From the NCBI GenBank assembly GCA_947476295.1, contig CANJQC010000045.1:1-38261 (forward strand): a stretch of 38,261 bases of DNA, given 5' to 3'. Under the pieces are notes generated by a model, which worked only from the letters and a program-made list of their open reading frames with translations, was not told where the DNA came from and ran no database searches. The position numbers and the translations under genes were made by a program. The stretch is from Planctomycetaceae bacterium (GTDB lineage: Bacteria > Planctomycetota > Planctomycetia > Planctomycetales > Planctomycetaceae). Positions 3,428 to 38,261 of this stretch are shown here, one piece after another (the stretch's first letter is position 1; each line of letters starts with the position of its first letter).

Positions 3428-4264
3428 ATGCCCGAACTTCCTGAAGTCGAAACGATGGTCCGCGGCATTCGCACAGACTGTGTCGGACGCCGAATTGACC
3501 GGACGCTATTTCCGCCCTGCCGGTGTAGACCGATTCAGATCAGCCCCAGCCGCCACACATTTATCAAACACACCGAGGGCCGGACGATCACCAAAATTCG
3601 CCGTCTGGCAAAACGCATCGTTTTGGAACTGGACTCCGGCCAACTGATTGTTGTGGAACCCCGCATGACGGGATTGATGCTCATTACCGACCCGCCGACT
3701 CGCAAGCATCGCCGAATCTGCTTTGAATTTTCGCCAGTTCGGAAGAAGGCACCCCTCCTAGAATTCTGGGATCGTCGCGGCCTGGGCACGATATCGCTGC
3801 TCAACCCTCAGCAATTTCTGCGGCTTGAATCGAGACTTGGCAAAGACGCGCTGGATCTTTCCGTTGAAGACTGGATATCGATCCTTGCACAAACTGAACG
3901 AGAAATCAAAGTTGTTCTGCTGGATCAGTCGCGCGTAGCGGGCATCGGTAATCTGTACGCGAGCGAGATTCTCCATGAAGCCCGCATTTCACCATTCCGC
4001 GCTGCTTCAAGCGTTTCAAGACGGCAGATTCAAAAACTGGCGAACGCGACGATTCGCATTCTGCAAGAGGCCATCGTATATGAAGGCTCGACGCTTGGCG
4101 ACGGCACGTATCGCAACGCTCTGAACAAAGACGGCGGTTACCAGAATCATCACTTGGTCTACAAGCGAGCCGATACACTCTGTTCGTCATGCGGAAAGGC
4201 CACCATCCATCGCGCAGTGCAGGCTCAAAGAGCAACATTTTTCTGTGGAAAATGCCAGCGGTAG
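3428..4264 (+). CDS. mutM: Formamidopyrimidine-DNA glycosylase (Fpg)
   Basis: This 278-residue bifunctional glycosylase/AP lyase removes oxidised purines such as 8-oxoguanine. The N-terminus MPELPEVETMVRGI is diagnostic: after Met removal Pro2 is the Schiff-base nucleophile and Glu3 the acid. Lys62 (RLAKRIV) matches the conserved lysine near the lesion. The helix-two-turn-helix segment reads GIGNLYASEILHEARISP (about 173-190). The C-terminal zinc finger has C242/C245 and C273/C276, with the conserved RATFFCGKCQ ending. Length and domain order are normal for Fpg/Nei. No Shine-Dalgarno is obvious; an A/T-rich stretch precedes the ATG. It converges on the next gene with a gap of nine bases. Confidence 0.96.
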   Translation: MPELPEVETMVRGIRTDCVGRRIDRTLFPPCRCRPIQISPSRHTFIKHTEGRTITKIRRLAKRIVLELDSGQLIVVEPRMTGLMLITDPPTRKHRRICFEFSPVRKKAPLLEFWDRRGLGTISLLNPQQFLRLESRLGKDALDLSVEDWISILAQTEREIKVVLLDQSRVAGIGNLYASEILHEARISPFRAASSVSRRQIQKLANATIRILQEAIVYEGSTLGDGTYRNALNKDGGYQNHHLVYKRADTLCSSCGKATIHRAVQAQRATFFCGKCQR

Positions 4265-10846: not shown

Positions 10847-10980
10847 GCGATTCCTGTACCTTGGACATTCATGTCCGAGACCTCGCCAATAATCATCCCG
10901 TACGGAAAAGGACTCCTGCGGCACAAGAACCTACGCTACGAAAGCGTTTCATGGCCATGCGACGGACGAGAATGGTCATC
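10847..10980 (+). repeat. Interspersed inverted-end repeat, copy A
   Basis: One of four copies of a short element in this window. It begins GCGATTCCTGTACCTTGG, contains the palindrome GGACATTCATGTCC at 10863-10876, and ends with a diverged inverted copy (GACGGACGAGAATGGTC). The core shares ACGCTACGAAAGCG and TTTCATGGCC with copies B and C. It fills most of the gap between hisD and the epimerase gene and encodes nothing. See copies at 14237, 16661 and 37358. Confidence 0.75.
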
Positions 10981-36156: not shown

Positions 36157-36951
<795 letters not shown>

Positions 36952-37357: not shown

Positions 37358-37481
37358 TAGGATGGACATCCACGTCCGTCGCAGGACCCAGAAACGTTGT
37401 CGAAGTGAAGGCTGCCGCAACCCAGGAATCTTGCGTCTGGGCAGCGCTCTTTGGCCAGGACTCGGACAAGAATGCCCAGGC
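37358..37481 (-). repeat. Interspersed inverted-end repeat, copy D (inverted)
   Basis: On the minus strand it reads GGGCATTCTTGTCCGAGTCC at its left, then CCCAGACGCAAG, TTCGACAACGTTTCTGGG, and ends GCGACGGACGTGGATGTCCA. This aligns along its length with copy C (GACATTCATGTCCGAGTC, TCAGACGCAGGG, TTCGACAGCGTTTGGGG, GACGGTCATGAATGTACA). It lies between ridA and the IS66 element. Confidence 0.7.
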
Positions 37482-37605
37482 GACCGAAGCAATACCCGCA
37501 AAACGGTCGTGAAGTGTAAGCGTCCGGGGAAACCATTCTTGCCAAGGTCGGTAGTCTTGGGGCCGGTGAATTCCGGTCTCTGGGCTTTTTCTGGTGAGGT
37601 AAGTT

Positions 37606-38106
37606 ATGAGCGAATGGGAGCAGGTTTGGCGTGAGCGAATGGCGTGGCAGCCGTGGTCGGGCTGACGGTGGCCGAGTGCTGCGAAGAGGCGGGCGTTTCG
37701 GTCGCCGCATTTTATCGGTGGAAGAAACTGCTGACGGAGCCACAAGGTCCTCGGCGTCTCCGATCGACGCGAAGATCGGAAGTTCAGGCATCAGGTTCAA
37801 AGAACCGAACGTCTCAGTTTGTGCCGATTGCCCTGCGAGATTCTTCGACGAATCCCGCTCCTCCGCAGAGCATGGCAGCAGACCATGGCAGCAGACCATG
37901 GCAGCAGACCATGGCAGCAGACCATGGCAGCAGACCATGGCAGCAGCATGCGGATCGAACTGCCGAACGGCGTGGTGATCCATGTGTCTGGCGATCTGGA
38001 TGGTCAGCGGCTGGTTGACGAGATCATCGCGGCCGGTCAGATCTGCAGCGTTCATGCCGACATGACAACGCGCGATCTGCCACGGCATGAGGTGTTGTCA
38101 TGCTGA
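37606..38106 (+). pseudogene. tnpA: IS66 orfA (TnpA), disrupted by frame changes
   Basis: The product should begin MSEWEQVWRERMAWQPWSG from ATG 37606. A stop follows at 37663 because the frame changes there: LTVAECCEEAGVSVAAFYRW, the helix-turn-helix part, continues in another frame and would be reconnected by one extra base near 37660. That frame runs into a 13-bp tandem repeat (37871-37946), after which the conserved C-terminus (MRIELPNGVVIHVSGDLDGQ to EVLSC) lies in the first frame again. The normal orfA is about 110-150 residues. As sequenced the gene cannot give a full protein without two frame changes. Confidence 0.75.
37871..37946 (+). repeat. 13-bp tandem repeat, five full units plus 11 bases
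   Basis: The unit CATGGCAGCAGAC starts at 37871, 37884, 37897, 37910 and 37923, and a partial unit CATGGCAGCAG runs 37936-37946. All full units are identical. Thirteen is not a multiple of three, so each unit gained or lost shifts the reading frame of orfA. Confidence 0.95.
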
Positions 38107-38261
38107 GTCTGCCATCACGCACAAAGATGTTTCTCTTTATGAATCTCGTGGACATGCGGAAAAGTTTTGACGGACTGTTCGGAATCGTGCGGGAGGAGTT
38201 CCAGCAGGATCCGCTCAGCGGCCATCTGTTTCTGTTCGTCAACAAGCGTCGTGATCGGATG
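38100..38261 (+). CDS. tnpB: IS66 orfB (TnpB), partial
   Basis: The first 54 codons of the IS66 TnpB accessory protein. It reads MLSLPSRTKMFLFMNLVDMR, then KSFDGLFGIVREEFQQDPLS and GHLFLFVNKRRDRM, matching the family pattern (VDMRKxFDGL...DPxSGxLFVFxNRRxDR). The ATG overlaps the end of orfA (ATGCTGA), the usual IS66 coupling. The gene continues past the right edge. Confidence 0.92.
   Translation, partial: MLSLPSRTKMFLFMNLVDMRKSFDGLFGIVREEFQQDPLSGHLFLFVNKRRDRM

What the first reader, a model, noticed from the sequence alone, without database searches (positions are those of the whole stretch)
37871..37946. Frame-switching 13-bp tandem repeat in IS66 orfA
Five identical units plus 11 bases lie between the helix-turn-helix and the conserved C-terminus. 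With 1, 4 or 7 units the two parts would be in one frame; with the present 5 they are not. Identical units imply recent or ongoing slippage, so transposase helper expression may be switched by copy number, as in phase-variable genes.
Basis: seen in the sequence. Interest (0 to 1): 0.58.

Follow-up and report, generated by a model that had tools for sequence, protein, structure and literature searches.

The report
Slipped repeat in dead IS66 gene
A 13-base sequence has been copied in tandem inside the helper gene of an ordinary mobile element in a planctomycete, putting the gene out of frame; the gene carries a second break and the element's other genes are broken too, so this looks like decay rather than an on/off switch.

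Summary
The array is real: five perfect 13-bp units plus an 11-bp partial (window 37871-37946), inside tnpA of an IS66-family element whose left end is at 37516. The two nearest relatives with an open tnpA have exactly one unit, in frame; the window's linker is 112 nt against 60 nt, that is +52 nt or four extra units. So slippage most likely expanded the array from 1 to 5 units.

The switching interpretation fails for this copy. It also lacks one G at 37659-37661, which creates a stop at codon 20, before the helix-turn-helix. A second copy in the genome (contig C128) keeps that G, but its contig ends before the array. Both assembled right arms are broken: C144 has a serine-recombinase insertion in tnpB and a shortened tnpC; C236 leaves the element inside tnpB. 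No complete tnpC of this element is assembled. None of five relatives' tnpA genes examined has an array.

Verdict: slippage in a decaying IS copy. Ordinary; switching is unlikely but was not tested at read level.

The parts
37516..38261 (+). Left part of an IS66-family element, cut by the end of the contig
   Evidence: Terminal sequence GTAAGCGTCCGGGGAA at 37516-37531, also at the left end of copies in C128 and C245 and inverted at C144:3382-3397; match to relatives begins at that base
37606..38106 (+). tnpA, frameshifted twice
   Evidence: Open 150-codon homologues in G131 and G118; NCBIfam NF047593 TnpA on the G131 homologue; reading with stops
37659..37665 (+). First lesion: GGG where copy C128 has GGGG; TGA stop at 37663-37665
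37666..37864 (+). Helix-turn-helix part and first half of the linker of tnpA, in the frame of ORF 37644-38018
   Evidence: Pfam HTH_Tnp_1, 24.1 bits, equal to the cut-off
37871..37946 (+). 13-bp tandem array, five perfect units plus an 11-bp partial; second lesion, +52 nt against relatives
37947..38106 (+). Conserved C-terminal part of tnpA, in the same frame as the ATG at 37606
38100..38261 (+). Start of tnpB; its ATG overlaps the tnpA stop (ATGCTGA)
   Evidence: NCBIfam NF033819 TnpB on C144, which shares 38113-38261

Best explanation
This is a slippage expansion in the linker of tnpA of a decaying IS66-family element. In three relatives the sequence before the last CATGGCAGCAG differs from it at two shared positions; in the window lineage it became identical, giving an 11-bp direct repeat at 13-bp spacing. 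Slipped-strand mispairing (inferred) then added four 13-bp units, from one to five. Since 52 is not a multiple of 3, the C-terminal part of TnpA went out of frame with the helix-turn-helix. The copy also lost a G near its start, and the rest of the element in this genome is broken, so the array most likely has no regulatory role. Shown: the array, the one-unit state in relatives, both lesions, the broken right arms. Inferred: the slippage mechanism, the order of events, and absence of function.
For: Linker 112 nt in the window, 60 nt in G131 and in G118, difference exactly four units. Both of these relatives have an open 150-codon tnpA with one unit. G131, G118 and G013 (C106) all carry C and T at the two positions where the window repeat has G and G. 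The missing G and a stop at codon 20 in the window copy. C144: tnpB broken by an insertion with a serine-recombinase remnant at the same junction as in G118, tnpC missing about 390 bp found in G131. C236: element sequence stops inside tnpB after 149 bp. No other complete tnpC of this element in the genome: the other hits are fragments in C100, C202 and C10 and a different IS66 in C246 at 34% identity.
Against: Copy C128 has an open tnpA start through 78 codons to its contig end, so the missing G is private to the window copy. If C128 also has five units, the array would be its only tnpA lesion seen so far. The assembly shows no branch at the array, which could mean that both copies have five units and that the element moved after the expansion. 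Neither right arm can be assigned to a left arm: the 8 bp beyond the C144 right end match neither left flank. Contigs missing from the assembly could hold an intact copy.
Confidence: 0.85

Rival explanations
1. Phase-variable helper: unit number changes between cells and switches full-length TnpA, and through the tnpA-tnpB overlap TnpB, on at 1, 4 or 7 units and off otherwise.
For: Unit length is not a multiple of 3 and the units are identical; the tnpA start is open in copy C128; tnpA and tnpB overlap by ATGCTGA.
Against: A second upstream lesion in this copy; no array in the five relatives' tnpA genes examined; broken tnpB and tnpC in both right arms.
Confidence: 0.04
2. The array is wholly or partly an assembly artefact: two copies of the element were merged from 37708 on, and the unit number is a consensus or belongs to the other copy.
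For: C128 ends 130 bp after its last difference from the window, and C144 and C236 both begin with the last 149 bp of the window, so 37708-38261 is sequence shared between copies.
Against: The array (82 bp) is shorter than the 149-bp overlaps, so reads or k-mers of that size would span it; merging two copies would not by itself invent five identical units.
Confidence: 0.07
3. The expansion is kept because it changes the product: the -1 base and the +52 add to +51, so the ATG frame and the C-terminal frame agree again, and a C-terminal fragment of TnpA or coupling to tnpB is preserved.
For: ATG 37606 and the C-terminal part are in one frame, and that frame is open from 37735 to 38103, with a possible TTG start at 37819.
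Against: Two stops lie between them in that frame, so the whole protein is not restored; no complete tnpC partner was found.
Confidence: 0.04

Closest known systems
IS66 family insertion sequences (tnpA, tnpB, tnpC), TnpA of NCBIfam NF047593 (ISAeme5 type)
   Same: Terminal repeats beginning GTAAGCG, tnpA and tnpB in order with overlapping stop and start; a relative's TnpA, and TnpB and TnpC pieces in C144, exceed the NCBIfam cut-offs
   Different: tnpA broken twice in the window copy; tnpB and tnpC broken in the assembled right arms
Phase-variable genes with tandem repeats whose unit is not a multiple of 3 (general knowledge; PMC12817950 seen in a search listing only)
   Same: Intragenic repeat, perfect units, unit length not a multiple of 3
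   Different: Gene has an independent stop upstream; no array in the relatives examined; variation between cells not tested

Membership tests
IS66 family element | TnpA accessory protein | tested here: met
   G131 homologue: NF047593 51.4 bits against cut-off 28; the window's own HTH piece scores 26.4, just below
IS66 family element | TnpB and TnpC | tested here: met
   C144 pieces: NF033819 82.9 bits against 50, NF033517 304.7 against 180, both from broken genes; C144 shares 149 bp with the window end
IS66 family element | Inverted terminal repeats | tested here: met
   GTAAGCGTCCGGGGAA at window 37516 and inverted at C144:3382-3397
IS66 family element | 8-bp target duplication | tested here: inconclusive
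   C144 right flank matches neither the C45 nor the C128 left flank; which arms belong together is unknown. Two IS66 rows with the value 8 seen in passages of PMC3281130
Phase-variable gene | Changing unit number alone restores the gene | tested here: not met
   Stop at codon 20 upstream of the array in the window copy; copy C128 not testable past its contig end
Phase-variable gene | Repeat array kept in homologues | tested here: not met
   0 of 5 relatives' tnpA genes examined have an array
Phase-variable gene | Unit number varies between cells | not testable with these tools
   No reads held

The most novel reading that the evidence does not exclude
An intact copy of this element, perhaps the one at C128 or one not assembled, uses the 13-bp array as a slippage switch for TnpA and for TnpB coupled to it, limiting transposition to the cells with 1, 4 or 7 units.
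Probability: 0.04. Interest if true: 0.6.

Novelty: new member of a known kind. Interest (0 to 1): 0.12.

Why it matters
If the switch were real it would be a way for a mobile element to limit itself by slippage, which would be notable. As it stands it is a clear small example of how a few substitutions can make a near-repeat into a direct repeat that then expands, and a warning that frame-shifting repeats in IS remnants are not evidence of phase variation unless the rest of the gene is intact.

Tried and rejected
Switching was rejected for the window copy because of the second lesion. Compensation of the two indels (-1 and +52 = +51) was considered and rejected because two stops lie between them in the ATG frame. 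Pairing the arms by target duplications failed: the C144 right flank fits neither left flank. The same repeat pattern elsewhere: no match in viral contigs; in 397 genomes of the class only G000 (5 matches) and G118 (1 match with two mismatches, the single-unit site). A tblastn of the C-terminal reading against plasmids gave nothing. DNA folding of the array gave z = -2.79 on the plus strand and -4.55 on the minus strand, which I attribute to the CCATGG palindrome in each unit; hairpins may favour slippage, but this was not pursued. Of the 12 non-own rows I tested 6 rows (5 genes) for an array; the other 6 (G118 C92, G013 C97, C53, C22, C2, and G166 C188), partial or distant, were not tested. 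Papers: five searches listed no paper on tandem repeats in an IS66 tnpA, judged from titles and starts of abstracts only. I read passages of PMC6778807, PMC3281130 and PMC2864759. Han et al. 2001 on IS679, from which I recall that all three genes are needed, is not held, so that point rests on recall.

Full report
The observation. The window ends inside an IS66-type element. Its left end, GTAAGCGTCCGGGGAA, is at 37516, and the match to relatives starts at that base. tnpA starts with ATG at 37606. Between the helix-turn-helix and the conserved C-terminal part lies a 13-bp tandem array, found by Tandem Repeats Finder at 37865-37946, with five perfect units at 37874-37938. The run of exact self-matches at period 13 is 63 bases; the maximum in 200 shuffles was 15.

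Identity of the gene. The homologue in G131 matches NCBIfam NF047593 (IS66 TnpA) with 51.4 bits, cut-off 28; the window's HTH piece alone reaches 26.4, below the cut-off, and 24.1 bits for Pfam HTH_Tnp_1, equal to its cut-off. tnpB begins at 38100 with its ATG overlapping the tnpA stop. TnpB and TnpC pieces in contig C144 exceed their NCBIfam cut-offs.

The one-unit state. A DNA search of 170 genomes of the family found 16 with any match; besides the window's own genome, three hold nearly the whole piece: G131, G118 and G013. G131 and G118 have an open tnpA of 150 codons with one unit and a 60-nt linker; the window has 112 nt, a difference of 52 nt or four units. The G013 copy in C106 is broken in the same linker by another change (55 nt). 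Two more distant G013 copies, C138 and C171, are open and have no array. In all, 0 of 5 relatives' tnpA genes examined have an array; the longest exact self-match in any of them is 8 bases. Six further rows in other genomes, partial or distant, were not tested for an array. G131, G118 and the C106 copy of G013 have C and T where the window repeat has G and G, so the window lineage made the near-repeat perfect before or during expansion.

The second lesion. Compared with copy C128 the window copy has three differences in the shared 323 bases: 37562, a missing G in the run 37659-37661, and 37707. The missing G leads to TGA at 37663, codon 20, before the helix-turn-helix. G131, G118 and G013 have one base more than the window at this place, as C128 has, so the loss is in the window copy. 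No unit number can restore this copy. The two indels add to +51, so ATG and C-terminal part are again in one frame, but two stops lie between.

The rest of the element. The genome assembly offers two left arms (C45, the window, and C128) and two right arms (C144 and C236), which both start with the last 149 bases of the window. In C144, tnpB is interrupted after TACAAG by sequence shared with G118 at the same junction; in G118 this holds a serine recombinase (Pfam Resolvase and Recombinase), in C144 a remnant with the recombinase zinc ribbon. In C144 the IS66 sequence resumes at about base 1482, and tnpC then lacks about 390 bp present in G131. C236 leaves the element inside tnpB and runs into a fragment with an integrase core. 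Other tnpC hits in the genome are fragments in C100, C202 and C10 and a different IS66 in C246 with 34% identity. So no complete set of the three genes of this element is assembled. I recall, from work on IS679 not held here, that all three are required for transposition.

What speaks against this reading. Copy C128 keeps the G and is open for 78 codons up to its contig end, which maps to window 37837, 28 bases short of the array. The assembly does not branch at the array, which suggests that both copies have five units, or that the assembler merged them. If both have five, the element was copied after the expansion, so five units did not prevent movement, perhaps with helpers acting in trans. 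Since arms cannot be paired and no reads are held, I cannot exclude an intact switching copy, but nothing found supports it.

Verdict. The proposed switch is not. The most likely account is a slippage expansion in a degenerating IS copy.

Noticed in passing
window 36664-36685, 37360-37381; core also at 10863 and 14253: A dispersed 22-bp repeat with a palindromic core, GGATGGACATTCATGTCCGTCG: 65 matches at up to one mismatch in the window's genome, 48 in G118, 81 in G131, 1 in G133, none in the other 14 of 18 genomes of the genus; the reversed-pattern control gave 0. It may be REP-like; the genome has at least one Y1 transposase gene.
   Followed up: partly
L044 (G000:C144) 3631-4200: A Y1 (IS200-like) transposase gene lies just outside the right end of the IS66 element (Pfam Y1_Tnp).
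   Followed up: partly
L044 195-1481 and L048 from 4679: An insertion carrying serine-recombinase sequence lies in tnpB of this IS66 element at the same junction in the window's genome and in G118, with TACAAG on both sides in C144.
   Followed up: partly
   Followed up: no
L005/L047 (G000:C245), L027 (G118:C92), L015 (G117:C169): Several fragments share only the first 146-168 bp of the element with the window and then diverge or come to a contig end.
   Followed up: no
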